A stretch of 64,000 nt of DNA from a virus, in the IMG/VR virus record IMGVR_UViG_3300019763_000001, positions 62,001 through 126,000 of that record. One strand, 5' to 3'. This document shows positions 1,269 to 30,442 of the stretch, in pieces. Every line of letters begins with the position of its first letter. Position 1 is the stretch's first letter. The position numbers and the translations under genes were made by a program. The notes beneath the pieces were generated by a model, which worked only from the letters and a program-made list of their open reading frames with translations, did not search any database and was not told where the DNA came from.

Positions 1269-3494
1269 TTAAATTAAGAAAGATGAAATGTCATGAGTCG
1301 CATCATCATCTATTTTCTCATAGTTATCATTGATATATTCCCACTTAGTTAGACCGCCAGTAGGTATAGAATACCAATCAGAATCCTTCATATTTTCCCA
1401 CTCAGATAATGAAGGATCGTACTTATCACCAAGTATTCTTTTTAATGGAGTGCCATGTCTAAAGTTGAATTTATGTCTATCTTCGCCAGTGTACTTATTA
1501 ACGTATAGATGATCAGGCTTTACTCTATGAATAAATTCAAACTTAAGTATATCCTTATATAGCGCTCCATCTGACCACTCATCAAATGAAAACGTTATGA
1601 TAACTCTAGGGTTATTTGTTTTTAGGAAATACTTAAATAATTTTGAAGCACCTCCAACAACTCTAATATCATCTTTGACAGCAAATCTATTTAGATTATA
1701 TACGGTTTTATCTTCTTTAGGGACGCTCTTAAACCCCATTACCGATACAAGCTCTCCATCATAAACCAAACCATATCTTATCGGATCACCAGCTCCGCTA
1801 CCTGCAATATGGTTTTTATCCAAAAACTCTCTATAACTATTTTTATCAACTTCAATTATTTTAGTCTTCCTTGCATATATAGCTTTTGTTTTTAGCTTAT
1901 TGAACTTTGATAAAAGAATTGTTTCAACCACTTCTTTTCTATTATTCCAGTGATGTTCATGTATTAATGTATAGCCATCCTCTATAAGATTCTTAACCCA
2001 TTCACCATTATTTTTTCCAGTGGATTGGCGTGATGAGCTAGAAGTAGGAAGAAACTTTATCTTATGATCGATTAAATCATTTTCTTCTAGAAATTTTTGA
2101 AAAGTTAATTCATTATCACTGACAATAATAGAAGATGATGATTCCTTAAACTTATTGAAAAGTCTTCTAAGATAAAAGTTTGGTTGTCTATCAGTTTCTT
2201 TACACCACTTTCGTATATCGCTAATTTCCAACTTCTCTTTATCAGTAAGCTCTCTACCAACTTCTTTGAACATACATTCCATTTCGTGACGTGCACCCAT
2301 CTTTACACCACAATGTGTGCATGTATGTTTTTCTCTAGCTGGATTCATATGCTTTAGGCCTTTACCACCCTTAAAGCTTTTCTTCATTTCATCAACAACG
2401 TTTTCTTCTGTCAAATCAACGCCAAATCGAACAATTCTAGTTTTGAATTTACTAAGAAGATGTGAAATGGTAGAACCTTTATAACCATTTTTTACCTCTA
2501 TCTCATTTTTGACCAATATTGTAAACACAGGAATATACTTATCATCCAACTCTTCATCATTTTTAATTTTTAAAGCAAAGCAATTCTTTTCATGATTTTT
2601 TAAGTGAGCAAATTCTAAGCCGCAATGTTTACATATACCTTTCTTATCTTCTTTTATGCTTTCTTCTGTTGGGATAGCATCCGTCCACTTAGCATTTGGA
2701 TTTTCTTCAAAGCATTTTTCCAAACGTTTCTCATAATGTTTCAATGTTAAATTATTTTCTTTAACGTGTTTGATAAGTTTTCTAACTTCCAACAATTGAT
2801 CTTCTGTATAATCTTTTTTGTGCCATCTACAGTTATTCGGCGTTAATGATTTATGCTTTTCATGACACTTTTGGCAAAATTTTAGAGTTTCCTTCTTTCC
2901 ATACTTATGATGCTTTAGATTTGGATTTGAATCAAACTCTTCCAATGTAACCCACTTATATCCTCCAGAGTCTAAATCCAATGCATATATGTTTTCTTTA
3001 AAAATACAAGTAGATTCATGAATATCTTCATCAAAATCTTCTACGTTAATTGTTATAGGTTCGCCAGTTTCTTTTAGTATAACAGAGCGTCTACCTTCAC
3101 GAATTGCTTCATACCTTCCAGTTTCCTTATATTGTTTATATAAGTCTTTAGGTACAAACAAAGTTTTTCCTGTTCGTTTATCTCTTAGCGACATTCTATT
3201 ATTGAAAGGTGATGGAGCACCACCAATCATACTATTAAGACATAATGGATCTGTTAAAGTTAGAAAGTTAACTAATTCATATTCTTTATCCAACATCTCT
3301 TTTTCATTATCAAATCTATGAAGAATAGATTTGGTGAAGTTAGGATCTTTCTCTTTCTCTTCATTGAGAAGAGTTCCACCACTGCCCATATATTTTGTTA
3401 GGTTTTCGTTTGGTTTTTCTTTGTGTACACCAATATAGTATTTCCCAGTGTTTGGGAAATCTATTTTATATACAGTAAATAATTTATCTGTCAT
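1269..3494 (-). CDS. GIY-YIG / Vsr-like homing endonuclease
   Basis: Free-standing homing endonuclease of 741 residues. The N-terminus has a GIY-YIG-type motif (KYYIG, 18-22). Three Cys/His clusters follow that look like zinc fingers: C207/C210/C222/H225; C288/C291 with H301/C305; C392/C395 with H403/C407. Residues about 496-545 resemble the Vsr-like (EDxHD-type) nuclease domain of phage homing endonucleases, with E513 and HHW 514-516. The C-terminal part (about 545-720) is the GNAT-like segment that usually accompanies it. It sits directly downstream of the capsid gene and has its own sigma70-like promoter, unlike its late neighbours. Two potential nuclease domains in one chain are unusual; which one is active is unknown. 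Family assignment is from motif recognition only. Confidence 0.75.
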   Translation of the reverse strand: MTDKLFTVYKIDFPNTGKYYIGVHKEKPNENLTKYMGSGGTLLNEEKEKDPNFTKSILHRFDNEKEMLDKEYELVNFLTLTDPLCLNSMIGGAPSPFNNRMSLRDKRTGKTLFVPKDLYKQYKETGRYEAIREGRRSVILKETGEPITINVEDFDEDIHESTCIFKENIYALDLDSGGYKWVTLEEFDSNPNLKHHKYGKKETLKFCQKCHEKHKSLTPNNCRWHKKDYTEDQLLEVRKLIKHVKENNLTLKHYEKRLEKCFEENPNAKWTDAIPTEESIKEDKKGICKHCGLEFAHLKNHEKNCFALKIKNDEELDDKYIPVFTILVKNEIEVKNGYKGSTISHLLSKFKTRIVRFGVDLTEENVVDEMKKSFKGGKGLKHMNPAREKHTCTHCGVKMGARHEMECMFKEVGRELTDKEKLEISDIRKWCKETDRQPNFYLRRLFNKFKESSSSIIVSDNELTFQKFLEENDLIDHKIKFLPTSSSSRQSTGKNNGEWVKNLIEDGYTLIHEHHWNNRKEVVETILLSKFNKLKTKAIYARKTKIIEVDKNSYREFLDKNHIAGSGAGDPIRYGLVYDGELVSVMGFKSVPKEDKTVYNLNRFAVKDDIRVVGGASKLFKYFLKTNNPRVIITFSFDEWSDGALYKDILKFEFIHRVKPDHLYVNKYTGEDRHKFNFRHGTPLKRILGDKYDPSLSEWENMKDSDWYSIPTGGLTKWEYINDNYEKIDDDATHDISSFLI

Positions 3495-3790: not shown

Positions 3791-5140
3791 TTAGGCAAGA
3801 TTTCTTATTACGGCCTTACGAAAATACGAGTTTTCGCTCTGCCCAAAACCAAGACCAGCTTTTGGAGTTTGTGCACCAGCAACAAGATCATGGGAAACAT
3901 ATGGGTTAGCAACAAGACCTGAACGATGCTTCATACCTTTAGAAGGCTGGTAGCTGTTACTATCAACGCCATCATAAATTTCCAAAGCAACGTATGGGCA
4001 GTAGAAAGCACCTGCGTCCATTGCACTTGCACCTTTATAACCAACAACCCAGTAGTCAGTAGATGCGAACGGATCAACATAAACTTTCAAGCCAGTTGGA
4101 GTGGTACCAACAAACAATGCACCTGTTTCATCAACAGTTTTACCAGTAATACCCGCTGAAGTCATAAAGCCCTGATCGGAAAGGATACCAGCCATTGCCA
4201 TTGCAGAAGCAATGTTAGCAGAAGTAACCACAAAGTTGCCTTTACCACGACGTGTTTCGCGAGCAATTTTAGTAGCTGCCAATTCCATGAACCAGAAAAG
4301 AGTACGATGCCTTTCTGCCATCCAACGACCATCTGTATCAATAGCCATATCGATAATACCAGCAGTTGTTACACCTTGGTCTTCAATCTTAGCTGAGATA
4401 GCCATTTTACGCATATGATACTGGTTAAGTTCAGCAATCATTTCCTGAGCCATGATGTCACCCAGAATTTTCTCTGCGTCCAAACCATGTACTGCTCGCA
4501 AATCCTGCTCGATCTCTCGAGTCCATGAAGAACGGAGACCCATACCTTCCGCAGAAACAGTTTGCTTCTCAATTGAGAAACTCATTTCTTTCCAAGCTGC
4601 AATACCAGCTGTTGCAGTACCCAACAATTCAAGCTCTGCGGTTGTGTACATTGTACCAACTGATGTACCAACGGCTGGAACACCAGCACCGAGTGCGTTA
4701 GCAGCAAAACCTGAAGTATCACCACCTTGTGTACCTGTCATTGCATGAGCTGAATTAGGCTCTTCAACAAGCGCTTCATCACCACCCTGAGCATTATAGC
4801 GGGAGCGAAGTGCAAACATCTGTTGATCTGGGGCGCGCATTGGCTGAACACCAAAGATATCAAATGCAAGTAGATTAGGAGCAGCGCGACGAGCCATATT
4901 CATAAGAATTGGTGACCATGTAGCTAGTGGAGAATTACCACCTGTTACACCAACTGCAGTATTTGATGGATCAGCAGCTTCCGAAATTTCAATTTTAGCG
5001 TCAAGATTGTCTTTCAACCATTTAGCTTGGTTTTCCAACATTACGGAAACAACGTCTGTTTTTGACATAGCTAGAGAAGATGGAATCTCAGCTTCCTGAA
5101 CTGCACCCCAAGCTTTCTTTTGTTCTTCTGTTAATAGCAT
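3791..5140 (-). CDS. gp23: major capsid protein gp23
   Basis: Hexamer-forming shell protein of the T4-like head, 449 residues (T4 gp23 is 521). Recognised by the conserved block around residues 85-110 (RRAAPNLLAFDIFGVQPM), which closely matches T4 gp23. The prohead protease gp21 should remove the N-terminal peptide: the motif ISE followed by Ala at residues 52-55 fits its (L/I)xE rule and sits just before the mature-shell sequence, as in T4. Preceded by a late promoter at 5193-5200 and an SD (GAGG), and ended by a strong terminator. No gp24-like vertex gene is seen in the window. Confidence 0.97.
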   Translation of the reverse strand: MLLTEEQKKAWGAVQEAEIPSSLAMSKTDVVSVMLENQAKWLKDNLDAKIEISEAADPSNTAVGVTGGNSPLATWSPILMNMARRAAPNLLAFDIFGVQPMRAPDQQMFALRSRYNAQGGDEALVEEPNSAHAMTGTQGGDTSGFAANALGAGVPAVGTSVGTMYTTAELELLGTATAGIAAWKEMSFSIEKQTVSAEGMGLRSSWTREIEQDLRAVHGLDAEKILGDIMAQEMIAELNQYHMRKMAISAKIEDQGVTTAGIIDMAIDTDGRWMAERHRTLFWFMELAATKIARETRRGKGNFVVTSANIASAMAMAGILSDQGFMTSAGITGKTVDETGALFVGTTPTGLKVYVDPFASTDYWVVGYKGASAMDAGAFYCPYVALEIYDGVDSNSYQPSKGMKHRSGLVANPYVSHDLVAGAQTPKAGLGFGQSENSYFRKAVIRNLA

Positions 5141-7007: not shown

Positions 7008-7187
7008 TCATTCACCTTCAGGTTTAGCAACGACTGATTGAGCAATCGCTGTTCTACCAGAATCAATTGATTGTTGTATGCAAGTGCTTAATGTTGTATT
7101 GATCGTATCTTGAGCTGCTGACATTTGACCTGATGCAACTTGTGATACGATAGTTCTAGCTGATGCAATAAAATCTTTACGTTCCAT
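7008..7187 (-). CDS. small prohead core protein, gp67/gp68-like position (59 aa)
   Basis: A 59-residue ORF (begins MERKDFIASA, ends VVAKPEGE) rich in Ala/Ser/Gln and helical. Its ATG overlaps the portal TAA (TAATG) and it ends three bases before the next ATG, so it sits tightly in the operon. An SD-like AGAGGAA lies inside the end of gp20. Position equals T4 gene 67 (prohead core). Product assignment is by context. Confidence 0.65.
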   Translation of the reverse strand: MERKDFIASARTIVSQVASGQMSAAQDTINTTLSTCIQQSIDSGRTAIAQSVVAKPEGE

Positions 7188-8788
7188 TATTGTTCCTCTT
7201 TATTTGATTGCGAAGGTGAATCATCATCTGAAGTATCATCCTCATCATCAACACCATATTCTTTACGTTCTCTTTTGATTTGATCGTTCATTTCTTTAAT
7301 TTCATTATCTGTGAAATTGAATATAGCTTTGAATAGATATTGTCGTGATAAGTACTTTCCTTCAAGTTCTTGTGCATCATTTAAAATGCTTATTCTTTCT
7401 TGTAATGTATTTAATTTACGCTGTTCTACAATTATAGAGCTTTCGTTCCATATGAAAGATATATCACTTTCAATCTCCAACCAATCATCTTCATCGAGTA
7501 ATCCTGATAAAATCAATTGAGTTTTCAAAAGGTTTTTGAACAGTATTTCAAATGACTTACGTTCTCTTCTAATGAATTTCGAGAATGTCAATTCTTCTTG
7601 AGTTAACTCTGTAATATCACCACCGAATGATATACCTGCATTTGTCATAACCCTATTAAGAGGAATGCCTAATGATTTATATAAACGCTCTTTAAAGAAC
7701 TGTAGATGATTTGTTTCACCTAAATTATCAGCTCCTGGTAATTGTTCGATTTTTGTACCTTTGCCATTTGATGTTGGTAGCCAATAATTCTGCGTCATCG
7801 TCATCTTGAACGCATCATCTTCAACCTTACCTGTAGCAACATTGTATTTGATATCTGTTTTATATTTATTCATAATATCTTTGACGTATTTTTCAGCTTT
7901 ATTTGACTGTAAACCGCCAGTATCGATATGAAAAGCTAGCCTTTCGGGTGCTCTTGATAGTGCATATATAACATGTGAATCTAATAATCCCATATATTGA
8001 TTCACAGGCTTTCTTGCTTTATCAAGCTTAGATAAAATTATGTTACTCTTAGCTGTAGATAATCCGCTGTGAATGAATACTGTTGATGCATCTGTTAGTT
8101 TAAAAGCTTTTTGAAAAGCAGATGACGAAAAAGAAGCCATTGACATTTGCTGTTCATTTTCTTTATGAATAGAAACATCATATATAAACCCTTTCTCTCT
8201 ACTAACAACCTTTTCATGATGCGTTGTAGGGTCTAATTCTTTTTTAACAAAAGAAACAGGGCTAATACATCTAGGATCTAAAATAACTAAACTTTGAATC
8301 CCTTCTTTCACTTGATTAATGTCAACAACCTTATAAACGTACAATCTACCATCAATATACTTCTGTCTAACGATAGTATGTGGATCATCTGACCATCCTA
8401 GCTTTTTAAACAAGTAGTTCATAGAATCGATGATTTTTTCTTTTAACTCTTTTGACAGTTCTGTGCAATTCGACAAATCAAGTTCAACGGCATTTGCATC
8501 ATCATCAGCAGATACAATGGAATCTACAATTTGGGTTATGGCTTCATCAACTTCTGGTACTCTTGCTAACTCTCGGTAAGAATTTATGAGTTCTTTGACA
8601 GTTGTTATAACTGGTGACATATCTAACGTTGACCTAGTTTGACTAGCATCAACATCAATGTTTGTATATCCATCTTCACGAGGTGGTTCAATAAAGTCAG
8701 CACGTTTGAAGAGCTTTTCTTCTTGCCTATCAGATGGATGGATTATCTCTACACCCCTCTGTGATCTTTTGTCTTCAAAATCAAACAT
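7187..8788 (-). CDS. gp20: portal vertex protein gp20
   Basis: Dodecameric portal through which DNA is packaged and the neck attaches. 533 residues (T4 gp20: 524). The conserved portal segment YRELARVPEVDEAITQIV lies near residue 70, followed by the KYIDGRLYVYKVVD segment. The C-terminus is acidic. Good SD (GGAG) ten bases before the ATG. Promoter variant AATAAATA at 8866-8873; heads the head-assembly operon through gp23. Confidence 0.95.
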   Translation of the reverse strand: MFDFEDKRSQRGVEIIHPSDRQEEKLFKRADFIEPPREDGYTNIDVDASQTRSTLDMSPVITTVKELINSYRELARVPEVDEAITQIVDSIVSADDDANAVELDLSNCTELSKELKEKIIDSMNYLFKKLGWSDDPHTIVRQKYIDGRLYVYKVVDINQVKEGIQSLVILDPRCISPVSFVKKELDPTTHHEKVVSREKGFIYDVSIHKENEQQMSMASFSSSAFQKAFKLTDASTVFIHSGLSTAKSNIILSKLDKARKPVNQYMGLLDSHVIYALSRAPERLAFHIDTGGLQSNKAEKYVKDIMNKYKTDIKYNVATGKVEDDAFKMTMTQNYWLPTSNGKGTKIEQLPGADNLGETNHLQFFKERLYKSLGIPLNRVMTNAGISFGGDITELTQEELTFSKFIRRERKSFEILFKNLLKTQLILSGLLDEDDWLEIESDISFIWNESSIIVEQRKLNTLQERISILNDAQELEGKYLSRQYLFKAIFNFTDNEIKEMNDQIKRERKEYGVDDEDDTSDDDSPSQSNKEEQ

Positions 8789-8939: not shown

Positions 8940-9485
8940 TTAGTTAATAACAACACCATTAAGTAGATCTTCAATTCTAATATCGTAGTAAGCAAATGTA
9001 ACAGTAAAAGTTGCATAGCTATTTTCTGATGTCATATCCATTTCAATACCTGTGATAGACATAGGCCAAGCATCATTTAAACGATATTGTTTTATTCTGT
9101 TGCCTTCATCATCCAATAGGTAAAAAGAAACATCGGCTACAATATCAGCAATCGAACCAACTGCTGAATTTGTTTCTAAACCATTCGTTCCATTATGCCA
9201 ACGCTCAAAAGACGTTAATGGTAACAAATCTTGTGTTAAAATGAATGTAACAGAGAAATCTGCAAACTCACGATCACCAGGAATTGGAATATTACGACCA
9301 CCCCAACGAATCGGTAGTTTACCCATATTGTGTTCAGGGACTGCTGAACTTTGAGCTAGTACTGATGCTTGTCTCGCGTTTTCCGTTGATGCAGCAAAAG
9401 ATGGGAAAGCGAAATCAACTTCCCAACGATGTTGACGAATAACACCAGCAGCAATACCAGCCTTAAAATCATTAATATCAGCCAT
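8940..9485 (-). CDS. gp19: tail tube protein gp19
   Basis: Inner tail tube subunit; 181 residues (T4 gp19: 163). Typical features are the RHRWEVDFAFPSF-type N-terminal strand, a GRNIPIPGDREFADFSVTF block, and a C-terminal SENSYATFTVTFAYYDI strand pair. Directly downstream of the sheath gene with a hairpin (9505-9524) between. Ends at TAA, followed by a terminator. Confidence 0.93.
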   Translation of the reverse strand: MADINDFKAGIAAGVIRQHRWEVDFAFPSFAASTENARQASVLAQSSAVPEHNMGKLPIRWGGRNIPIPGDREFADFSVTFILTQDLLPLTSFERWHNGTNGLETNSAVGSIADIVADVSFYLLDDEGNRIKQYRLNDAWPMSITGIEMDMTSENSYATFTVTFAYYDIRIEDLLNGVVIN

Positions 9486-9546: not shown

Positions 9547-12500
9547 TTACTGTTGTTCTGTATAAACAACTGTTGAACCATCTGCAACAAAATCTAGGAA
9601 AACCCAGTTAATAGAGCTAACTGGTTTAACACGAATAGTACCAACTAGAACACCCTGATCAATAGCAGCTTGACTATTGTTTGTTGCATCGCAAGTAATC
9701 TGGAATCCTGGTCCTCTTTCAGTGTTAAATGCTCTATTTGCTTCAATATTTCTTAAGAATGGAGTAACAGCACTTAAGAACTGATTGCGCGTAAATGGAT
9801 CATGCTCTTCACCCAAATAGAATTTAGAGATATCAGCAATGCGTTTTTCCATAAACAAGAACAAACTACGAACGGTAACTTTCTGGAATGGTGAAGGTGC
9901 TTGAAGCATTGTTCTATCACCATAAAGAATTTTACCACCACCTGGGTAATCATAAATTGGATTAATTTGTTTCTTATACAGAATATCTCTATCCGATTTA
10001 GAAGCGTTCCACGCAAGTTTTTCATAATTGCGATATACACCTCTGTTATGGAAAGCAAATGATTTCCAAGGATAAGATGTTGCATCAGTTCTAGCTTTCA
10101 AACCAGCTGTACCACCGTTACAAGGAATCCAACGGAATACACTGTTATATTTATCCCAAACATAAGCCCAGTTATCATCAGCAAATGCATAAGAGCTATT
10201 TACATTAAGCTCTACATCTCGCCACTGTTCAATGGCAGCACGTTCGGTACCAGATAACGCTTGAACATCACTAAATTGAGGTGATAAGAATGTGATTGTA
10301 TCCTTACGACGCTCTGAAATCTCGACTGCTTCACGCTGTTGTGTGAAAGTCATATCGCCAGTGATTATGTAGCTTGCTTGTTCACATGCACTTTCTAAGT
10401 ATGCCATATCAGGCAGCTTATCGACGTTAACGTTATCGTCTACACCACCACTCAATTGATATGAGCCAGCAACCAATGGAATAGAAGGATCACCTACAAA
10501 TAAACGAGTTGATTCAGTTAAGAATGCATCGACGAAATATTTGCTTGTACCGTCATCTCTTGTCTCACCAGGGTTAGTGGAAACAACTTCATACTTTTCT
10601 AAAATTTCTGAGTTATTACCAGAAGAAACAACGCTAGGAACGACGATAAATCCTGTGTTTGTTACTGTTGCAACAGCAGGCTTAACACCAGCTTCAGCTC
10701 TAGTTGCTGTAATAACAGAACCACTTCGAGAAACACTTGACCATTTAGTGTCTAATGCCATAGCGGTTCTAATAGATTCAGCAATTTGATCTTCAACATC
10801 AGCAGTAGTAATTACACCAGAAACTGCATTTCCATCAACAGTACCAGAGAATTCCAATTCACCATTCACAATAAGTGTTTGAGCAGTTGTAATTCCGTTA
10901 GACGTAGAACCTACGAATTGCGTATGAGGACCATCTTCTTTCCATTCAATGATGATACGGTTCCTATCAATAAAATCTGAAGCTCTGATGCTCCAAGCTG
11001 AAGCAGCAACGTCATCGCTAGACTGGATGATAGAAGTTGTAAGTGCACCACCAAACGAAATCAATCTATTACCAACGTATGTTGCATCATAAACGTTGTT
11101 AGCAGAAACTTGATTAGCAGTAGGTGTCCATACTGTTAAATCAGTTGCAACTGCTGTGTATGTTAAACCATTACCAAAAGCAACAACTCTAGTACCGTTA
11201 GATGCAAGTGCTGTTAAATTATCACCTAGACCTAATGCAGTAGCATGTGAAATCCATGTCGCACCTTGATCGTTTGTTGTAATGATAATACCATCATCAC
11301 CAACAGCGATAACAGCAGATGAGCTTAGAGTGACAATTTTATTAATTGCTGTTGCAACAGGTGCAACTTGAGAAACCCAGTTAATACCACCATCATCTGA
11401 AGTACAGACTGAACCATTATCACCAACAGCAATAAATCGAGTACCAGCATAACCAATACTTAGAGCATCAGAGCCACCAAATGCATCAGTTTGTGTAACC
11501 CATGTTGCGCCATAATCGTTAGATGTAATAGTAGAACCACCATTAGCAACTGCAACCCAAACACCACCACCAAAAGCGAAGTCATTAATTTGTGTACCAG
11601 CGAGCGGAGAAACTTTTTGTGTCCAAATTTTACCATCATTAGAAATTGCAATCTTACCAGTTGATGTACCAGCCATAAATCGACCGTTTGAGAATCCTAG
11701 TGCGGTGATTGTGTCACCAAAACCAAAACCATTGATCAAACCTTGACTGTATATGATACCATCAGCTGATACAGAAACATTGCCATCAGCGCCACCAATG
11801 ACATATAAACCATTGCCATAGATTGCAGATGTAATAAATGTATCGGTGCCAGCAATTGTTGAAACACTTGCTTGATAATCTGGCAAACCATCTAAATACG
11901 TTGCAATTTTTTCAGCAACTTTGTTTTTACCATCACCGCGAGTTACAGGAATAGTATAGTTATCTAGTGTAATTTCACTAGCTGTTGCTAATCCTGATAC
12001 ATCAATTTGCTCTACTTGAGTTACAGAAGTCACCCAAGCTGGAGTGGATTGTTTAAACACGCGAAGTTTTTCAACTTGTGTAGTTTCTTTCTCACCTGTC
12101 CATGCACCATATGTATCTACAACAGCAATAGCAAACTCACCAGCGGATGGCGTGTATGTAAAGTTATTTCGATAAGGCCACGTCGCAAAAGTAGTTGAAT
12201 CAGCTACCTCAACTCTTAGGGAGTTGCCCAAAATTCCTGGATACTTAGCAACGAACTGTTGACCAACAAAATTTCCAGACTCTTGATCTGCAATGTTTTT
12301 AACTAGAGGTGCAGTGCCAGCGGTTACAGCATTACGAGCATTAACACCGACAGCGCGAACATAATACAGAGAATCTGTATAACTCAAGAAGTCGGATGCA
12401 ACCATAAAATCTCTATACGTTTCTTCATTGGGTTTACCGTATGTTGAAACATATTCAGCCTCACCAGCAGTAACTAGGTAAGGTTGTGAAGCTGGACCCC

Positions 12501-12624
12501 AAGACGCAACACCCACCATAGCACCGACAGTAGTTTTGTCGGTACGAATGTTTAATTCGGATGTGCGTTCACGGAATTCTACAGCAGGTGAAGGGCTTAC
12601 AGTGAAGCCTAATGACTCAGCCAT
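9547..12624 (-). CDS. gp18: tail sheath protein gp18 with inserted beta-propeller
   Basis: Contractile sheath subunit. The N-terminal (1-250) and C-terminal (about 700-1025) parts are sheath-like; the C-terminal segment with RDILYKKQINPIYDYPGGG and FLRNIEANRAFNTERGPGF is the conserved T4 gp18 core. It is 1025 residues against 659 in T4. The extra length is mostly residues about 255-550, seven Asp-box repeats (S/T-x-D-x-G-x-x-W type) at about 285, 327, 367, 408, 449, 492 and 535, spaced 40-43 residues: a seven-bladed beta-propeller of BNR/Ycf48-like type. Two similar small domains (about 205-257 and 580-660) flank the insert. It probably projects from the sheath surface; a glycan- or cell-surface-binding role is inferred. 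Late promoter at 12685-12692. Confidence 0.93.
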   Translation of the reverse strand: MAESLGFTVSPSPAVEFRERTSELNIRTDKTTVGAMVGVASWGPASQPYLVTAGEAEYVSTYGKPNEETYRDFMVASDFLSYTDSLYYVRAVGVNARNAVTAGTAPLVKNIADQESGNFVGQQFVAKYPGILGNSLRVEVADSTTFATWPYRNNFTYTPSAGEFAIAVVDTYGAWTGEKETTQVEKLRVFKQSTPAWVTSVTQVEQIDVSGLATASEITLDNYTIPVTRGDGKNKVAEKIATYLDGLPDYQASVSTIAGTDTFITSAIYGNGLYVIGGADGNVSVSADGIIYSQGLINGFGFGDTITALGFSNGRFMAGTSTGKIAISNDGKIWTQKVSPLAGTQINDFAFGGGVWVAVANGGSTITSNDYGATWVTQTDAFGGSDALSIGYAGTRFIAVGDNGSVCTSDDGGINWVSQVAPVATAINKIVTLSSSAVIAVGDDGIIITTNDQGATWISHATALGLGDNLTALASNGTRVVAFGNGLTYTAVATDLTVWTPTANQVSANNVYDATYVGNRLISFGGALTTSIIQSSDDVAASAWSIRASDFIDRNRIIIEWKEDGPHTQFVGSTSNGITTAQTLIVNGELEFSGTVDGNAVSGVITTADVEDQIAESIRTAMALDTKWSSVSRSGSVITATRAEAGVKPAVATVTNTGFIVVPSVVSSGNNSEILEKYEVVSTNPGETRDDGTSKYFVDAFLTESTRLFVGDPSIPLVAGSYQLSGGVDDNVNVDKLPDMAYLESACEQASYIITGDMTFTQQREAVEISERRKDTITFLSPQFSDVQALSGTERAAIEQWRDVELNVNSSYAFADDNWAYVWDKYNSVFRWIPCNGGTAGLKARTDATSYPWKSFAFHNRGVYRNYEKLAWNASKSDRDILYKKQINPIYDYPGGGKILYGDRTMLQAPSPFQKVTVRSLFLFMEKRIADISKFYLGEEHDPFTRNQFLSAVTPFLRNIEANRAFNTERGPGFQITCDATNNSQAAIDQGVLVGTIRVKPVSSINWVFLDFVADGSTVVYTEQQ

Positions 12625-12705: not shown

Positions 12706-13287
12706 TTACAGTTTTTCTCTCATTTGAATAATGTTTCTAGAAGGTCTATCACCAAACCACCAACCTATTACAGTTGTTGAGATGTATATTATGGTGAATA
12801 ACAAATATTTGATGATATCTGATTTTTGATCCGCCGATAATCCATTCATATAATCATCTAAGTTATTGTATAACCAATATGATGCGAACATGATTATAAA
12901 CATACTTGCGTAGGTTATAATTGGTCTAACTAATCGTCTAATGAACTCAACTAATCCCCATAGAAAATTAATAAAAGGATTTTCTGAATTTGTCATCGAA
13001 TCTGTCTTAGCGTGTCCATAAGAAGAAATTGTTGTATTTTCGGCAGCAACTTCCATTTTTTGTTCAGCGTCTATGGATATAATATCGACCTTAGCATCAA
13101 GCTCTAATTCCATTTCCGCTAAATCTTTATCTCTTAATTTTAACTCATGTTCATTATCTATTTTCTTCGATTCGTTTTGAAGTTCTAAAGCTTTTGTTTC
13201 CATCTTACTTTTTATGAACATACCAACCAAAGATGTTAAACCACCCAATAAAGCTGATACACCACCAGATGTTAATATATCTAACAT
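12706..13287 (-). CDS. three-TM holin-like membrane protein
   Basis: 193 residues. A hydrophobic Gly/Leu-rich N-terminal segment (about 5-26), a long charged helical middle, and a C-terminal block with two membrane segments (about 120-138 and 162-180) ending VIGWWFGDRPSRN. The RPIITY...WWFGDR pattern matches the phage '3TM holin' family known from gene transfer agents. It would permeabilise the inner membrane at lysis. Immediately downstream of the DUF5675 gene, forming a likely lysis pair. Strong SD GAGGAG. Family by motif, lysis role by inference. Confidence 0.7.
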   Translation of the reverse strand: MLDILTSGGVSALLGGLTSLVGMFIKSKMETKALELQNESKKIDNEHELKLRDKDLAEMELELDAKVDIISIDAEQKMEVAAENTTISSYGHAKTDSMTNSENPFINFLWGLVEFIRRLVRPIITYASMFIIMFASYWLYNNLDDYMNGLSADQKSDIIKYLLFTIIYISTTVIGWWFGDRPSRNIIQMREKL

Positions 13288-13297
13288 TATATTCTCC

Positions 13298-13840
13298 TCA
13301 TTTAAATCTAACGATTAATTTAAAGGGTTTATCATTCATGTGTTTCATAAAAGCTGTTAACGTTGATTTGGAGTTTAAAACAGCTTTTTGAGGTCTAGTA
13401 TATCCTTTAGGAGTGAATATACCTATTTTCTTACCAAGTAAGATGCAACCTTCAACGTGAGTCTTCCACCCTAATTCTTTATCACCGGAGAAGTTTCCAG
13501 CGTGTATCAAAATGTAAGATCTTCCTTTTACATCAGTTACGTGAAAAACTATACCAAATCGCGGTGATTTTCTGATTTTACAGATGTAGTCGCCATCAGG
13601 AATGCAAGATAACCCAACTGCATTATTTTTCCACGGTAATTCACCAACGAAACACGAAAACCCAATAGTCTCTAATGTACCAAATGTTCCTTGTTCGCTT
13701 GTTTCAGCCCTGTTTATATAAACAAGGGGTAAATACTCTTTATCCTGTATTAACTTAGTTGAATTGAGATTTGTAGTAAGAGCAGCTATTGCTAACCGCT
13801 CTTTAGTAAAATAGGATTTAATATAGTTAAAAATAGACAT
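13298..13840 (-). CDS. DUF5675 family protein
   Basis: The conserved DUF5675 features are present: IPDGDYICKIRKSPRFG (about residues 85-101), GRSYILIHAGNFSGD and EGCILLG. The biochemical role of the family is unsettled, but it is common near phage lysis genes and here it precedes a holin-like gene, so a part in lysis or cell-wall processing is plausible. Tandem ATGs at 13843 and 13840 overlap the end of gp17; the second has the better spacing from AAGGTGGG. 180 residues. Confidence 0.65.
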   Translation of the reverse strand: MSIFNYIKSYFTKERLAIAALTTNLNSTKLIQDKEYLPLVYINRAETSEQGTFGTLETIGFSCFVGELPWKNNAVGLSCIPDGDYICKIRKSPRFGIVFHVTDVKGRSYILIHAGNFSGDKELGWKTHVEGCILLGKKIGIFTPKGYTRPQKAVLNSKSTLTAFMKHMNDKPFKLIVRFK

Positions 13841-15692
13841 CATCAAACCCACCTTGTTGCTTAGTTAAGTGCATAGTTCCACCAAATAACTCCTGCTCTA
13901 AAAAATTCGCTTCATTTACAGAGACGATTTTATTTTGAGAAAAGTCATATTGACCTGAGAGTTTGTAGAGAATATCAGATCCATGTTCATTTTTAATGAT
14001 GAATTGCTTATCTGCAATATAGTTATGTAAGTTTGGAATAATACCAAACGGAATAACATTTCTAAACTCATCAACTTCTGCATCATCCCTTACATTCATA
14101 TTTGCATAATCATTAAACCAAGGTTGAGTCGTTAACCATGCAAATGTTGATAATGTATCTACGCAATCATCGTGACAATCTAAATCAGCATTCCACGTCT
14201 CTTTATCAGCAACGAATGTTAACAATTCAGTTGCAGTCCACTGGTCAGTTACTTCAATGGAACCATTCTCAACGAGTAGTTTCAAATTAGTACAGGCGGA
14301 TGATTTAGTTGCTTTGTTTGTAGCTAAACCAAGTTTACCTGTATAACCCTCAACTATATTTTGACCTCTACCGTTTATATCTGGTTGTGTCCTCAATAGA
14401 TTCGGATATTCCAAATCATTGAATAGCATCGTTATAACCTGACCACCTGTTGTATTGTTCGTTTCAACTAGAATCGGCGCTTCACCGTATTCCATTCCCA
14501 TATTGTGAATAACAGTTGGGAATAACATAGGGTTTATAGTGTTGCTTCTATATATTGCTGCTGTTCTAAAAGGCTTTGAACTAACATCAATACAACGAGC
14601 AACAGAATAATCACCACCTACGCCAGCTGCGGTATCTACAGTTACTATGTATTTATTTGATTCTTTGTATTCATGGTATATTTGAAGTACATCTTCACCC
14701 ATCGAATCCTGTTCATATTTTATTGGAACTTTAGTTTCTAGATCTCTTAAAAGATCTGCATCTATTAGAGTATCTGAACCACCTAGGAATTCACATTCAT
14801 GTTCTTGTCTAAACGCTCTGATACCACCACCGTTTTTGATAGTAGTTTCTTTCCACGCTTCATCTCTACCGACAACATCACTCCATAACACTTTCTTAAA
14901 TGCATATTCATTTTTACCTGAAATAGCATCTAGCCACGTATTATAGAATACACCTCTCATTCCATTAGGTGTTGAAGTCATATATAAACGAGTTTTTGAA
15001 CCTGATGATAAAACAGAATATGAAGATTCATAGAACTGTCTGTCTGCATTGAAGAAAGCCATTTCGTCGCAGAATAATAATGAAATAGATTTACCACGCA
15101 ACGCACTGGGACCAGCTGCAAATGCAGATACTTTACATTTATTTTCAAATGCAATTGATCCTTTATTCCATACAACAACACCATTTTGAAGCCAATAAGG
15201 AAGAGATTCAAACATATCTTTGATACGATCCATAATCTCTATAGATTGACCCAATTTGTGAGCTACAACAGCAACTTCCAAACCTTCATGGAACAATAGG
15301 AACCACAGTATATACCCTGCTGTTGTTGTTGTTTTACCTGTCTGTCTAGCTTGTAAAGCAATAGCAAATCTATTGTTGTGATATAACTCTATTAAGTCTT
15401 TTTGATAATCTCTTAACTTAAATGGAATTATACCATCATCAACAGATGTTATTGTTGTGTATGTTTCTAAAAAATAAACTGGATCTTCCATACACTTGAA
15501 AAATTCAATTTTATGCTCTTCAGAAATATCAACACTAACATGCGCTCTTTTTAAATTAGGCTCGCCTAAATATGTTCCACCAATTGGTAAATTGACATCA
15601 GAAACAGGCCATCCATGATATTGTTTAGCTGGTATAAATGTTTGCTTAGATCCATTTTGTCTTTGAGAGTTCTTAAGAGAAACTAAAGCCAT
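13827..15692 (-). CDS. gp17: terminase large subunit gp17
   Basis: DNA-packaging motor and headful nuclease. 621 residues from the ATG at 15692 (T4: 610). ATPase: Walker A ARQTGKTT (115-122), Walker B LLFCDE (205-210), coupling motif TSTPNG (239-244). Nuclease: D353 in VDTAAGVGGDY, E410 in LVETNN, D508/D509 in DCHDD. A TTG two codons upstream overlaps the gp16 stop, but the ATG has a well-placed GAGG SD. Follows gp16 directly, as in T4. Confidence 0.96.
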   Translation of the reverse strand: MALVSLKNSQRQNGSKQTFIPAKQYHGWPVSDVNLPIGGTYLGEPNLKRAHVSVDISEEHKIEFFKCMEDPVYFLETYTTITSVDDGIIPFKLRDYQKDLIELYHNNRFAIALQARQTGKTTTTAGYILWFLLFHEGLEVAVVAHKLGQSIEIMDRIKDMFESLPYWLQNGVVVWNKGSIAFENKCKVSAFAAGPSALRGKSISLLFCDEMAFFNADRQFYESSYSVLSSGSKTRLYMTSTPNGMRGVFYNTWLDAISGKNEYAFKKVLWSDVVGRDEAWKETTIKNGGGIRAFRQEHECEFLGGSDTLIDADLLRDLETKVPIKYEQDSMGEDVLQIYHEYKESNKYIVTVDTAAGVGGDYSVARCIDVSSKPFRTAAIYRSNTINPMLFPTVIHNMGMEYGEAPILVETNNTTGGQVITMLFNDLEYPNLLRTQPDINGRGQNIVEGYTGKLGLATNKATKSSACTNLKLLVENGSIEVTDQWTATELLTFVADKETWNADLDCHDDCVDTLSTFAWLTTQPWFNDYANMNVRDDAEVDEFRNVIPFGIIPNLHNYIADKQFIIKNEHGSDILYKLSGQYDFSQNKIVSVNEANFLEQELFGGTMHLTKQQGGFDDVYF

Positions 15693-25912: not shown

Positions 25913-28900
25913 TCAAGCTGTCTTAAATTCAGACCATTCTGAATAACTAGAACTAACAGGATCAACTGACGTATATTTAACTCTAACACTATACCACTTA
26001 CCACTTGCTAACGTTGCAGGTGATAATGAAGTTAAGTTACTTGATGCACGCTGTAATTGTGAACCAACATCCCAAGTACCTGTTTCGTTTGTTAAAGCAA
26101 CAGTTGTTCCATCAATAGATACAATAACACCTGTACCATTATTGCCGTTACCAATTTCGGTAATGCTTTGACCTATAGCAAAGCCATCAGCATCGGCACC
26201 AGATATTGATAATTCTGTTACTGCACCTACGCTTCCTGTAGTCCCGACGCCAGATCCGTTGTACGATATCCAGATGATATTTCCGCTAGTTTCATTTTTA
26301 GCAACTGTTCCTTCAGCGTTTATAGGAGATGTTTGAATATCCCATGTTATTCCAGAATCATTTGATACAAAGACGTCTGAATTAGTAGCATCATCAGCGA
26401 CGAATTTGCCATCAATAACTTTTAAAGATCTACAGCCTATTAAAACATTACTGGTCGTATTGACCCAAGTTGTTCCTCCATTTGTTGATCTATAAAAAAT
26501 TGTATCTGCGCTATTTTGTACAATACCAATATTATTATGGAAAGCCCATGTTAGTTGTCCAGTTGTATTAGATAGAGGAATACTACCTGCTGCTGACCAC
26601 GTTGCGCCATTATTAGTGGATTTATAAACAGTTCTTGTTGAAGCGTTAGGTCTACCAACTAAGTATAAGTGTCCAGTAACTGAATCTATACAATGATTTC
26701 TGTAATTTAATCCACCTTCGATTAGCATACTGAAACCAACCGCAGCGTCAGAAATTACAGTATCATATTCAACCATTGACCACGTTACACCATCGTCTGT
26801 AGTTCTAGCTAAATAACTTCTTTCGCTTGTGGTTGTATTACCAGCACCTCCTGCAACTAACCATATTTGGCCAGTTACGTGAATAACGTTTCCTGTATCA
26901 ACGTGAGCAAATCCAGATATATCAGGTAGCGACATCAAACTACTTTTCATATCAACGAAATTTGAAAAGGTGCTATCATTTTTAATAAATGCATTTTGTG
27001 TTGATGCTGTTCCTCCATTTGAGCTATTTCCTATCATCCATAAACCGCTGCCATTGCTCGCTATAGTTTTTACGATATTAGGAACAATAGAAGTATTATT
27101 ACCTAAACTAGATTTAACAACAGAATTCCATGTAGCTCCATCATTTACAGATTTCCAAATATCATTTGGGGTTGATACTTTACCTGATGTCGTTAACCAC
27201 ACACCTGTAGTTTCATCAACAGAAATACCACCCAATTCAGTATATACAGATCCTGATGTATTTGAAGCTGCTTGTATTCCAGTTCCAATTGATGTGATAG
27301 CATTTGTTGATGATGTAGCACTCACACCATTAAATGTAGAAACGCTTCCGGTTGCTGCTCTATCAACTTTAGAACCTACTGTCCATACACCATTTGAAGA
27401 CGATAACGTAATTTTAGTATTGTCTAATGATGCTATTGCACCACTAGCATCACCACCGCCACCCAATTCAGTGATAGAGTCACCGGCTTTAAATCCATCT
27501 GTTTGACATCCTGAAATTGTTAGTTCAGTTGAAGGTATTCCAGTACCATCATATACATAAATTCTATCATCTCCACCTAATCCACCAACTGCTATCGTTA
27601 TATCAGAAATTGGATCATATTTAACCTGTCTAACTTTACCTAGAAATAACGTCTGCAGTGGATGTACACTTGGGACAATTGTTGCGCCATTATCTGTTGT
27701 ATAACAACACGGTGCTACAATAACGCCGTTTGCTTCATAGATCCATCGTCTAGCGTTGAAGTCGTTAGAAGCTGTTCCAGGATTTGAAAGGCCACTATCT
27801 TGATATGTCCAGTTAATCAAATCATCTGACCAATATAATCCAACAATTGATGCACAGAACCATCTACCTGATGATGATCTAATGATCTGCCCTGGCGCGT
27901 CATCGCCTGTTCCTAGAGCATTTGATTGCGTCCACGTTGTACCAAAATCAGTTGAGAAACGAATATTTGAATCTGAAAGCCCAACTATAACAGCTGTATC
28001 ACTAACGCTATCATATGTTCCGAATCTAGCTTCTGGTGCTGCAACAACGGTACTCCAGCTAGTTAGATCGCCTGATGTTATTGATCTTTGCATAGCTCCA
28101 GAAGAGCTTAATAACAAGACTCTATCTTGAGATTCACTATAAAATGCACCAACAGAGCTTAAAGGATTAATCACATATCCAGCGGACGATGTAAAAGACC
28201 ATGTTGCTCCATTATCATTACTTCTATAATAACCACCTGCTTCAAAAGTGTATACATATCCATCATTCATTTTGAAAATGCCAGAAGTCTGATTTCCAGA
28301 TCCCAGCGGATTTCTCTCGACAAAAGTTGCTCCACCATCTGTACTTACAAATATAGTTCTATCCGCTGCACCACCAACGTATATAGTTCCATTATCTGGA
28401 TCCACAAAAATCATATCCTGCACTTCTATAGTTCCTGGATCTGTTCCTCTTATATTACCAACAGGCGTGATCGTATTGACAGCTGTTATATTGTTAGTGC
28501 TGGTTAATTGATTTAAACCATCTCTAAACTGCCATTCAGTTGTATCATGCGCACCAGCGGAATTTAAAGGAGTATATGAACTACTTGTAATTGTCGGATT
28601 ATTACTAATACCTGTTGCATCATTAGTTGGCGTTAAAATAACAGGTTGCTGAACAGAAGGAATTGCCGCTGTTGTTGTCGCTGTAAATACATCAGTTTGT
28701 TCTGTCCCATCTAAACCTACATGAACTGTTAAATCATATGAAGTTGTAGATGTATTACCAACAGTTAACCTAACTTGAATGGTATCCCCATTATTGATAT
28801 CTATGCCAGTTGCTTCATCATCAGGAAGAGTTTGAAATGCACTTCCGTTAATGGATATTAACTTATTAGTTGCACCTACTCCCAATACACCCCAAACTTT

Positions 28901-30442
28901 AACGCGAGTATTTAAGCCAGCCAATGTAATAACATTTGAAGTGTTTATACTAGACAGAGCAACTCCTGTTGGATCATTGAATGAAAAGGCATCTGCTAAT
29001 TTATCAATAGTGAACGTATAATCATCTCTATACGCAGAAGCTGTTGAGAAAATACCACCATTAATAGTTGTTCCGTGTGCAGAATTGATACAACCAACAC
29101 CACTATTCCAACGAGTATATAACGTATCTGTATTGACAATAGTTAATGGGCCATTACCGAATGTAATTCCATCTAAGGATATTTCCATACATCCATCACT
29201 TTCAATACTCATTGCTCCATTTGACCAAGTTGTTGTCGATGTTGCGTGAGATGTTGCTGGAACGTTAATTGGTGTAGGAAAACTAACTATATTGGCTGTT
29301 ACAGTTGTCCATGTTGCTGTTTGAGTTGTCCATCCTACATGCAAAGTTGTCGTTTGCGTCGTATTAGGAACTAAACTTACAGTATGTCTAAGCTTAATAA
29401 CATCACCATCTCGTGCCATTGCAAGAGCGCCTGTTGTTTTAGCTGCTGCTGCACTCCCTTCAGTTCTCCACGCTTCAAATGCACCAACACCACCACGTTG
29501 AATTGCGTAACTTGCTCCTGATATACCACCAGTTACATAAACAGGTGTTAAAGCGTTAACACCAGAGACAGTAACTGTTGTTGTTGATTCGTGAGTTCCG
29601 CCTAAACCTACATTAGAATTTGTTGTAAACACATTTAATCCAGCAAATGGAGATGGTTCTTTATCAACAACAAAATCAACTTGACGTGTATTAGTCCCAA
29701 CTGTAAATTCACCAGATTGAGATGCATCGCCGTCAGGTAACGCGATAATGTTAGCATCAGACATTACTAATTGAACAATATCACCCGCATTCACAGAAGC
29801 TGGTAATGCTACAGGTGCACCATTATTAATAGAAGCTAGTGCACCAGCAATGGTTGATGATACTGGAATAGCACCAACACCAATTGCTGTAACACCAACG
29901 GTTGTTGCACTGTTTGTTATAAACGCCAATACAGATGGACCAGCAACTGTAAAAGAAGTTGGTTCCATGTTAATTGTTCTAATTGCCCAAAATGATCCAT
30001 TCCAAACAATTGAAAAGATAAACCCTCTATCACTAATGGTTAATGATGGATTAGTTGCGTAGTTAATATCATTGCCGTTACCATCGATAGTAATAGCATT
30101 AACATCATAGGTGTTTGCAAAATCAGCAATGAAAATCTCATCACCTTCGTTAGGAAGAGGTGGACAGAAAACTGTATAGCTACCACCTGACGTATCAAGC
30201 ATATAACCATTACCTGCTTCCATTGTAATTGGGCCAGTTTGTGCTGGGAATTTCCAATTTGATCCACCTAACGTAGACCATCTACCATTCAAATATTGCT
30301 CTATTGCTCCGACAGAAGAATTATGTCTAATCATACCTTCCTCTGCAATTGCTGGACGATTTGCTGTTGTTCCTGATGGAGGCTTAATTGCACCTACTCC
30401 AGTTACGTCAAGGATATCGTCTTCAACGCGAAATCTACTCAT
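25913..30442 (-). CDS. large tail fibre protein with two Asp-box propeller regions
   Basis: 1509 residues. The N-terminus has the fibre-start pattern GVGAIKPPSGTTANRP then GMIRHNSS and NGRWSTLGG. Asp-box repeats (STDGGATF, SNDNGATW, STDFGTTW, SDDLINW and others) occur at about 700-920, and a second series (VNDGATW, TTDDGVTW, STNNGATW, STNGGTTW, SNDSGITW) at about 1095-1365. A repeated module starting TELSISG...DGF...G.SITE occurs near 985 and 1430. It is beta-rich, with no membrane segment. Probable receptor-binding or surface-exposed fibre. Ends in TGA overlapping an alternative start of the next gene. Confidence 0.8.
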   Translation of the reverse strand: MSRFRVEDDILDVTGVGAIKPPSGTTANRPAIAEEGMIRHNSSVGAIEQYLNGRWSTLGGSNWKFPAQTGPITMEAGNGYMLDTSGGSYTVFCPPLPNEGDEIFIADFANTYDVNAITIDGNGNDINYATNPSLTISDRGFIFSIVWNGSFWAIRTINMEPTSFTVAGPSVLAFITNSATTVGVTAIGVGAIPVSSTIAGALASINNGAPVALPASVNAGDIVQLVMSDANIIALPDGDASQSGEFTVGTNTRQVDFVVDKEPSPFAGLNVFTTNSNVGLGGTHESTTTVTVSGVNALTPVYVTGGISGASYAIQRGGVGAFEAWRTEGSAAAAKTTGALAMARDGDVIKLRHTVSLVPNTTQTTTLHVGWTTQTATWTTVTANIVSFPTPINVPATSHATSTTTWSNGAMSIESDGCMEISLDGITFGNGPLTIVNTDTLYTRWNSGVGCINSAHGTTINGGIFSTASAYRDDYTFTIDKLADAFSFNDPTGVALSSINTSNVITLAGLNTRVKVWGVLGVGATNKLISINGSAFQTLPDDEATGIDINNGDTIQVRLTVGNTSTTSYDLTVHVGLDGTEQTDVFTATTTAAIPSVQQPVILTPTNDATGISNNPTITSSSYTPLNSAGAHDTTEWQFRDGLNQLTSTNNITAVNTITPVGNIRGTDPGTIEVQDMIFVDPDNGTIYVGGAADRTIFVSTDGGATFVERNPLGSGNQTSGIFKMNDGYVYTFEAGGYYRSNDNGATWSFTSSAGYVINPLSSVGAFYSESQDRVLLLSSSGAMQRSITSGDLTSWSTVVAAPEARFGTYDSVSDTAVIVGLSDSNIRFSTDFGTTWTQSNALGTGDDAPGQIIRSSSGRWFCASIVGLYWSDDLINWTYQDSGLSNPGTASNDFNARRWIYEANGVIVAPCCYTTDNGATIVPSVHPLQTLFLGKVRQVKYDPISDITIAVGGLGGDDRIYVYDGTGIPSTELTISGCQTDGFKAGDSITELGGGGDASGAIASLDNTKITLSSSNGVWTVGSKVDRAATGSVSTFNGVSATSSTNAITSIGTGIQAASNTSGSVYTELGGISVDETTGVWLTTSGKVSTPNDIWKSVNDGATWNSVVKSSLGNNTSIVPNIVKTIASNGSGLWMIGNSSNGGTASTQNAFIKNDSTFSNFVDMKSSLMSLPDISGFAHVDTGNVIHVTGQIWLVAGGAGNTTTSERSYLARTTDDGVTWSMVEYDTVISDAAVGFSMLIEGGLNYRNHCIDSVTGHLYLVGRPNASTRTVYKSTNNGATWSAAGSIPLSNTTGQLTWAFHNNIGIVQNSADTIFYRSTNGGTTWVNTTSNVLIGCRSLKVIDGKFVADDATNSDVFVSNDSGITWDIQTSPINAEGTVAKNETSGNIIWISYNGSGVGTTGSVGAVTELSISGADADGFAIGQSITEIGNGNNGTGVIVSIDGTTVALTNETGTWDVGSQLQRASSNLTSLSPATLASGKWYSVRVKYTSVDPVSSSYSEWSEFKTA

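What the first reader, a model, noticed from the sequence alone, without database searches (positions are those of the whole stretch)
9547..12624. Seven-repeat Asp-box beta-propeller inserted in the tail sheath protein
gp18 is 1025 residues instead of about 660. Residues 255-550 contain seven Asp-box motifs with 40-43-residue spacing, typical of a seven-bladed propeller, flanked by two similar small domains. Each sheath subunit would carry a propeller, coating the contractile tail with potential binding sites. The insertion must be compatible with contraction.
Basis: partly seen in the sequence, partly recalled or inferred. Interest (0 to 1): 0.7.

Follow-up and report, generated by a model that had tools for sequence, protein, structure and literature searches.

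The report
Phage tail sheath with inserted propeller
The protein that forms the contractile outer tube of this uncultured T4-like phage's tail carries an extra seven-bladed propeller domain of a kind that other phages encode beside their host-gripping tail fibres, so the tail surface may itself be sticky; the propeller is well supported by prediction, its job is not yet known.

Summary
The minus-strand gene at 9547-12624 is a T4-type tail sheath (T4 gp18, E about 1e-57), the only sheath gene found in the 155-kb record. A 491-residue insert (about 178-668) sits at one loop: in 36 of 80 relatives residues 177 and 669 practically abut. The insert holds a seven-repeat Asp-box propeller (262-550). 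Given homologues, AlphaFold2 models it well (block pLDDT 71-97 over 266-535); closest solved fold is Ycf48 (TM 0.72), closest viral model a phage propeller (TM 0.82, 2.0 A). A complete small domain follows the propeller and a partial copy precedes it; nesting of the propeller inside that copy is only suggestive. Multi-domain sheaths are known, and close relatives carry one to three such small domains there, but none of 118 other sheaths compared has a propeller. Stand-alone viral relatives sit among collagen-like tail-fibre genes. Best reading: a fibre-type recognition domain added to a tolerant outward loop of every sheath subunit. The architecture is supported by prediction; adhesion is inferred; placement on the tail and contraction were not modelled. 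No glycosidase catalytic residues are visible. New variant of a known kind.

The parts
9547..12624 (-). tail sheath gene (gp18), 1025 aa, including stop codon
12094..12624 (-). sheath core, N-terminal part, residues 1-177
   Evidence: Pfam Gp18_domIII_N at 33-90; empty-site comparison; AF2 pLDDT about 80-93 for most of 31-170
10621..12093 (-). insert at one loop, residues about 178-668 (491 aa; boundaries good to a few residues)
   Evidence: in 36 of 80 IMG/VR sheaths residues 177 and 669 lie within 8 residues of each other or overlap slightly
11860..11976 (-). first small alpha/beta domain, N-terminal part (residues about 217-255)
   Evidence: 12.9 bits with the small-domain profile; strand-strand-helix in both AF2 models
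10975..11841 (-). seven-repeat Asp-box beta-propeller, residues 262-550
   Evidence: Ycf48 E 1.4e-7; AF2 block pLDDT 71-97 over residues 266-535; Foldseek to Ycf48 and phage propellers
10885..10968 (-). proposed C-terminal part of the first small domain (residues about 553-580)
   Evidence: best splice 256/552, 22.2 bits against 12.9 for the N part alone; 2 of 2000 fixed-boundary shuffles reach it, but not significant against a scan-wide null; suggestive only
10618..10851 (-). second small alpha/beta domain, complete (residues 592-669)
   Evidence: 32.1 bits with the profile built without it; position
9550..10620 (-). sheath core, C-terminal part, residues 669-1025
   Evidence: Pfam Phage_sheath_1 773-906 above cut-off, Phage_sheath_1C 909-1008 just below cut-off; T4 gp18 match
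8940..9485 (-). tail tube gene (gp19), ordinary size, next to the sheath gene
   Evidence: Pfam Phage_T4_gp19 E 2e-9; PHROG tail tube 4e-46

Best explanation
The gene encodes the working tail sheath subunit of a T4-like myovirus. At a tolerant loop of its variable region (equivalent to about residue 287 of T4 gp18) it has gained extra domains: at least one complete small alpha/beta domain and a partial or split copy of the same domain, as in Ackermannviridae and Cygsa01-like relatives, plus a seven-bladed Asp-box propeller of the type that other phages encode next to collagen-like tail-fibre genes. The propeller most likely faces outward from each sheath subunit and acts as a non-enzymatic, low-affinity binding domain for cell-surface glycans or extracellular matrix, helping the virion stay near a cell before the fibres engage. 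Supported by computation here: sheath identity, single-site insert, propeller fold (predicted), absence from 118 relatives. Inferred: outward exposure, binding function, ligand, compatibility with contraction.
For: Sheath identity and gene order. Single-site insert. Predicted propeller fold once homologues are supplied, Foldseek Ycf48 TM 0.72 normalised by target and phage propellers up to 0.82 at 2.0 A. Relatives with 0, 1, 2 or 3 small domains at the same site show that the loop tolerates inserts (pf16 sheath 533 aa, PhiW-14 827 aa). Stand-alone propellers of 304-323 aa sit among tail-fibre and collagen-like genes in the operons examined. Published view that extra sheath domains lie away from the tube and may serve adhesion or stability (PMC9230969). 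No Glu and no FRIP-like motif in the propeller, which speaks against an enzyme.
Against: No ligand, no binding data, host unknown. Association with fibre operons is guilt by association and those relatives are only 22-33% identical. The full-length prediction left the propeller unmodelled, so its placement on the sheath is not predicted. Ycf48 itself binds a protein (D1 peptide entries), so the fold does not imply glycan binding. The part of the last repeat beyond about residue 535 and the segment expected to close the first small domain are low confidence.
Confidence: 0.55

Rival explanations
1. The propeller is a lattice-strengthening element: propellers of neighbouring subunits touch each other and lock the extended or the contracted sheath, with no role in host binding.
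For: Extra sheath domains are proposed to stabilise the sheath in phage 812 (PMC9230969). With T4 lattice values from general knowledge, nearest neighbours near the sheath surface would be about 50-58 A apart when extended and 36-39 A when contracted, close to the width of a propeller, so contacts are likely in the contracted state.
Against: None of 118 related sheaths needs it; stand-alone relatives sit in fibre operons.
Confidence: 0.25
2. The propeller is a docking platform for another phage protein, such as a fibre or whisker that lies along the tail.
For: Ycf48, the best solved structural match, is a protein-binding propeller; the phage encodes several large fibre-like proteins.
Against: No partner identified; not tested.
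Confidence: 0.12
3. The propeller is an enzyme (glycosidase) that clears capsule or matrix around the tail.
For: Asp-box propellers include sialidases (general knowledge) and a putative xyloglucanase is among the Foldseek matches (5jwz).
Against: No glutamate at all and only five arginines in residues 256-550, no FRIP-like motif; no match to an enzyme family in Pfam or NCBIfam.
Confidence: 0.04
4. Assembly chimera or a broken gene.
For: Single record, no near-identical relative available.
Against: One open frame of 1025 codons; insert in frame at a site where relatives also carry extra domains, with a complete small domain homologous to theirs inside the insert.
Confidence: 0.03

Closest known systems
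T4 gp18 and the type 3 multi-domain sheath proteins (Evseev et al. 2022, PMC9230969)
   Same: Conserved sheath core split by extra domains; 1025 aa lies within the published range (up to 1283 aa)
   Different: Published extra domains are often Ig-like sandwiches, or helical in AR9/PBS1; the word propeller does not occur in that paper's main text. T4 residues of roughly 90-185 have no counterpart here in the alignment
Ackermannviridae, Cygsa01-like and PhiW-14 sheaths
   Same: Same insertion loop and same small alpha/beta domain: one copy in Ackermannviridae, two or three in D524, Cygsa01 (812 aa), L175, L011 and PhiW-14 (827 aa)
   Different: No propeller
Ycf48 / YCF48-like seven-bladed Asp-box propeller (2xbg, 5oj5)
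   Same: Fold (TM 0.72 normalised by target) and weak sequence similarity, E 1e-7
   Different: Photosystem assembly factor; far below the NCBIfam cut-off for that family (24.7 against 326 bits)
Stand-alone phage Asp-box propellers in fibre operons (IMG/VR loci L096, L105, L136, L173 and others; Actinomycetia phage DSL-LC01)
   Same: 22-33% identical over the propeller; matching repeats with aligned Asp-box tryptophans
   Different: Separate genes beside collagen-like tail-fibre genes, not part of a sheath

Membership tests
T4-type contractile tail sheath protein | Sheath core domains at both ends of the chain | tested here: met
   Gp18_domIII_N and Phage_sheath_1 above Pfam cut-offs, Phage_sheath_1C at 26.3 against 26.9; T4 gp18 about 2e-57; Foldseek to T4 sheath E 5.6e-15, although TM is low (0.19/0.29) because much of the model is unfolded
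T4-type contractile tail sheath protein | Gene next to tail tube, between terminase and portal | tested here: met
   same order in PhiW-14 and pf16; two small extra genes lie between terminase and sheath here
T4-type contractile tail sheath protein | Assembles on the tube and contracts | not testable with these tools
   needs virions or polysheaths
Asp-box (BNR) seven-bladed beta-propeller | Seven four-stranded blades in a closed ring | tested here: inconclusive
   Seven repeats of 40-43 aa; block pLDDT 71-97 over 266-535 and Foldseek propellers; the outer strand of repeat 7 is not confidently modelled and coordinates were not inspected for ring closure
Asp-box (BNR) seven-bladed beta-propeller | Asp-box motif S/T-x-D-x-G-x-x-W in the blades | tested here: met
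   3 strict of 7, 4 degenerate; Pfam BNR and PSII_BNR match below their curated cut-offs
Ycf48 photosystem II assembly factor | NCBIfam equivalog cut-off | tested here: not met
   24.7 bits against 326
Asp-box sialidase | FRIP motif and catalytic Glu | tested here: not met
   no such motif; no Glu in residues 256-550
Type 3 multi-domain sheath (Evseev 2022) | Three or more domains, extra ones away from the tube | tested here: inconclusive
   Extra domains counted by sequence and partial models; position relative to the tube was not modelled

The most novel reading that the evidence does not exclude
A contractile tail whose entire outer surface is tiled with host- or matrix-binding beta-propellers, one per sheath subunit, making the sheath itself an adhesion organelle whose binding sites are re-spaced when the tail contracts.
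Probability: 0.3. Interest if true: 0.65.

Novelty: new variant of a known kind. Interest (0 to 1): 0.48.

Why it matters
Sheath proteins of large phages vary greatly in size, and why they carry extra outer domains is an open question. A domain type otherwise found beside fibre genes, sitting at the same loop where relatives carry nothing or one to three small domains, gives a clean natural comparison: the same sheath core with and without a putative binding module, testable by cryo-EM and binding assays.

Tried and rejected
Close relatives of the whole protein or of the propeller alone in IMG/VR: none. Phage records with the propeller: two weak non-sheath hits; two relatives used as queries gave no annotated sheath. 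Full-length AlphaFold2 with sheath homologues only: propeller not modelled, because no alignment row covered it; split-fragment and mixed alignments were misplaced by MAFFT, and a first sheath alignment misplaced one strand (corrected). The first version of the splice scan was contaminated by the second small domain and redone; even then the nested arrangement stands out only at fixed boundaries. Recombination scars: only short imperfect repeats in and around the propeller, nothing convincing. Bacterial genomes: one hit only, with patterns that miss diverged copies, so the origin is unresolved. Literature: no paper describing a propeller in a sheath protein was found, but the library is open-access only and the papers were judged by title and abstract start.

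Full report
What is there. The finding's coordinates hold one open frame on the minus strand, 1025 codons. It is a T4-type tail sheath protein by Pfam, PHROGs and solved structures, placed between terminase and tail tube with the portal beyond, as in PhiW-14 and pf16. Two small genes lie between terminase and sheath here, one holin-like and one unassigned. Searches of the 155,493-base IMG/VR record found no second sheath gene. The completeness of the record is not known.

The insert. Local alignment of the two parts of the core (residues 1-180 and 669-1025) to 80 IMG/VR sheath relatives shows that in 36 of them the two parts lie within 8 residues of each other or overlap by up to 3. All extra length therefore sits at one loop; the boundaries are good to a few residues, since the query pieces were cut by hand. 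By motif, the site corresponds to a hairpin near residue 287 of T4 gp18 (positions), inside the protease-resistant fragment 83-365 (range from PMC9230969). T4 residues of about 90-185 have no counterpart here in that alignment. Relatives use the same loop differently: pf16 (533 aa) has no insert; Ackermannviridae have one small alpha/beta domain; D524, Cygsa01, L011, L175 and PhiW-14 have two or three copies.

The propeller. Residues 262-550 are seven repeats of 40-43 aa. Three Asp-boxes are strict and four degenerate. phmmer finds Ycf48 at E 1.4e-7. When 33 viral fragments homologous to the propeller are supplied as alignment, AlphaFold2 models residues 196-592 with mean pLDDT 75.0 and pTM 0.71; ten-residue block means from residue 266 to 535 lie between 71 and 97, with residues 306-415 at 93-97. 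The same region was unmodelled, about 30, when no such rows were given. Foldseek gives Ycf48 entries (TM 0.72 by target, 3.8 A) and, among viral models, phage propellers up to TM 0.82 at 2.0 A. The outer strand of the seventh repeat is low confidence and ring closure was not inspected, so seven closed blades is a strong inference, not a demonstration.

The small domains. One complete copy follows the propeller (32.1 bits with a profile made without it) and part of another precedes it (12.9 bits). Splicing residue 256 to 553 gives the best single domain (22.2 bits). Only 2 of 2000 shuffles at that boundary reach it, but when the null is allowed the same freedom of boundary the result is not significant. 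Nesting of the propeller inside the first small domain is therefore a suggestion.

How unusual. A propeller profile was run over 119 sheath proteins including this one. This one scores 3e-67 (its own sequence is in the profile, so the value is only a yardstick); with two profiles no other sheath is better than 0.03-0.15, which is noise. Some of the 118 are partial and many Ackermannviridae are near-identical, and the first sample was the best 80 of at least 599 matching stretches, so rare cases may have been missed. Conversely, no ORF at the 80 IMG/VR propeller loci resembles a sheath, and seven phage records hit with three propeller queries are not annotated as sheath at the match (one has no annotation). 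Evseev et al. list sheaths up to 1283 aa with five or more domains, often Ig-like, and do not mention propellers.

What it may do. Stand-alone propellers of 304-323 aa lie beside tail-fibre and collagen-like genes in the four operons examined with PHROGs, and the fold commonly binds ligands (general knowledge). There is no glutamate in the propeller, no FRIP-like motif and no enzyme-family match. The best reading is a non-enzymatic recognition domain displayed by the sheath. Rivals are lattice reinforcement and docking of another phage protein. With T4 lattice values from general knowledge (not looked up), nearest neighbours are 50-58 A apart in the extended and 36-39 A in the contracted state at plausible radii. 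A propeller roughly 45 A wide would fit easily in the first and only edge-on or with contacts in the second. Contraction was not modelled.

Verdict. Observation confirmed; interpretation partly supported. A new variant of a known kind: a multi-domain sheath with a domain type for which no earlier report in a sheath was found in the held literature.

Noticed in passing
25913-30442 (-): A 1509-aa fibre-like protein of the same phage has its own Asp-box stretches (Pfam BNR and BNR_2 below cut-off, best stretches 739-749 and 1175-1296). The sheath propeller used as query found no second copy in the record, so they are not recent duplicates.
   Followed up: partly
50019-52337 (-): A 772-aa collagen-repeat protein with a weak carbohydrate-binding module match (CBM_5_12 at 592-632, below cut-off), one of several large adhesin-like genes.
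   Followed up: no
12706-13852 (-): Two small genes, one holin-like (weak GTA_holin_3TM match, PHROG of unknown function) and one not searched, stand between terminase and sheath, unlike PhiW-14 and pf16.
   Followed up: no
1269-3494 (-): A 741-aa gene beyond the major capsid gene reads by eye like a GIY-YIG homing endonuclease; not searched.
   Followed up: no
3791-5140 and 7187-8788 (-): Major capsid and portal proteins are below 60% identity to every phage record found (best listed 42.6% and 33-35%): the phage belongs to a deep lineage without close isolates.
   Followed up: partly
L147, L112, L118, L153, L155: Several IMG/VR loci encode large proteins with more than one propeller stretch, or several such genes in a row.
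   Followed up: no
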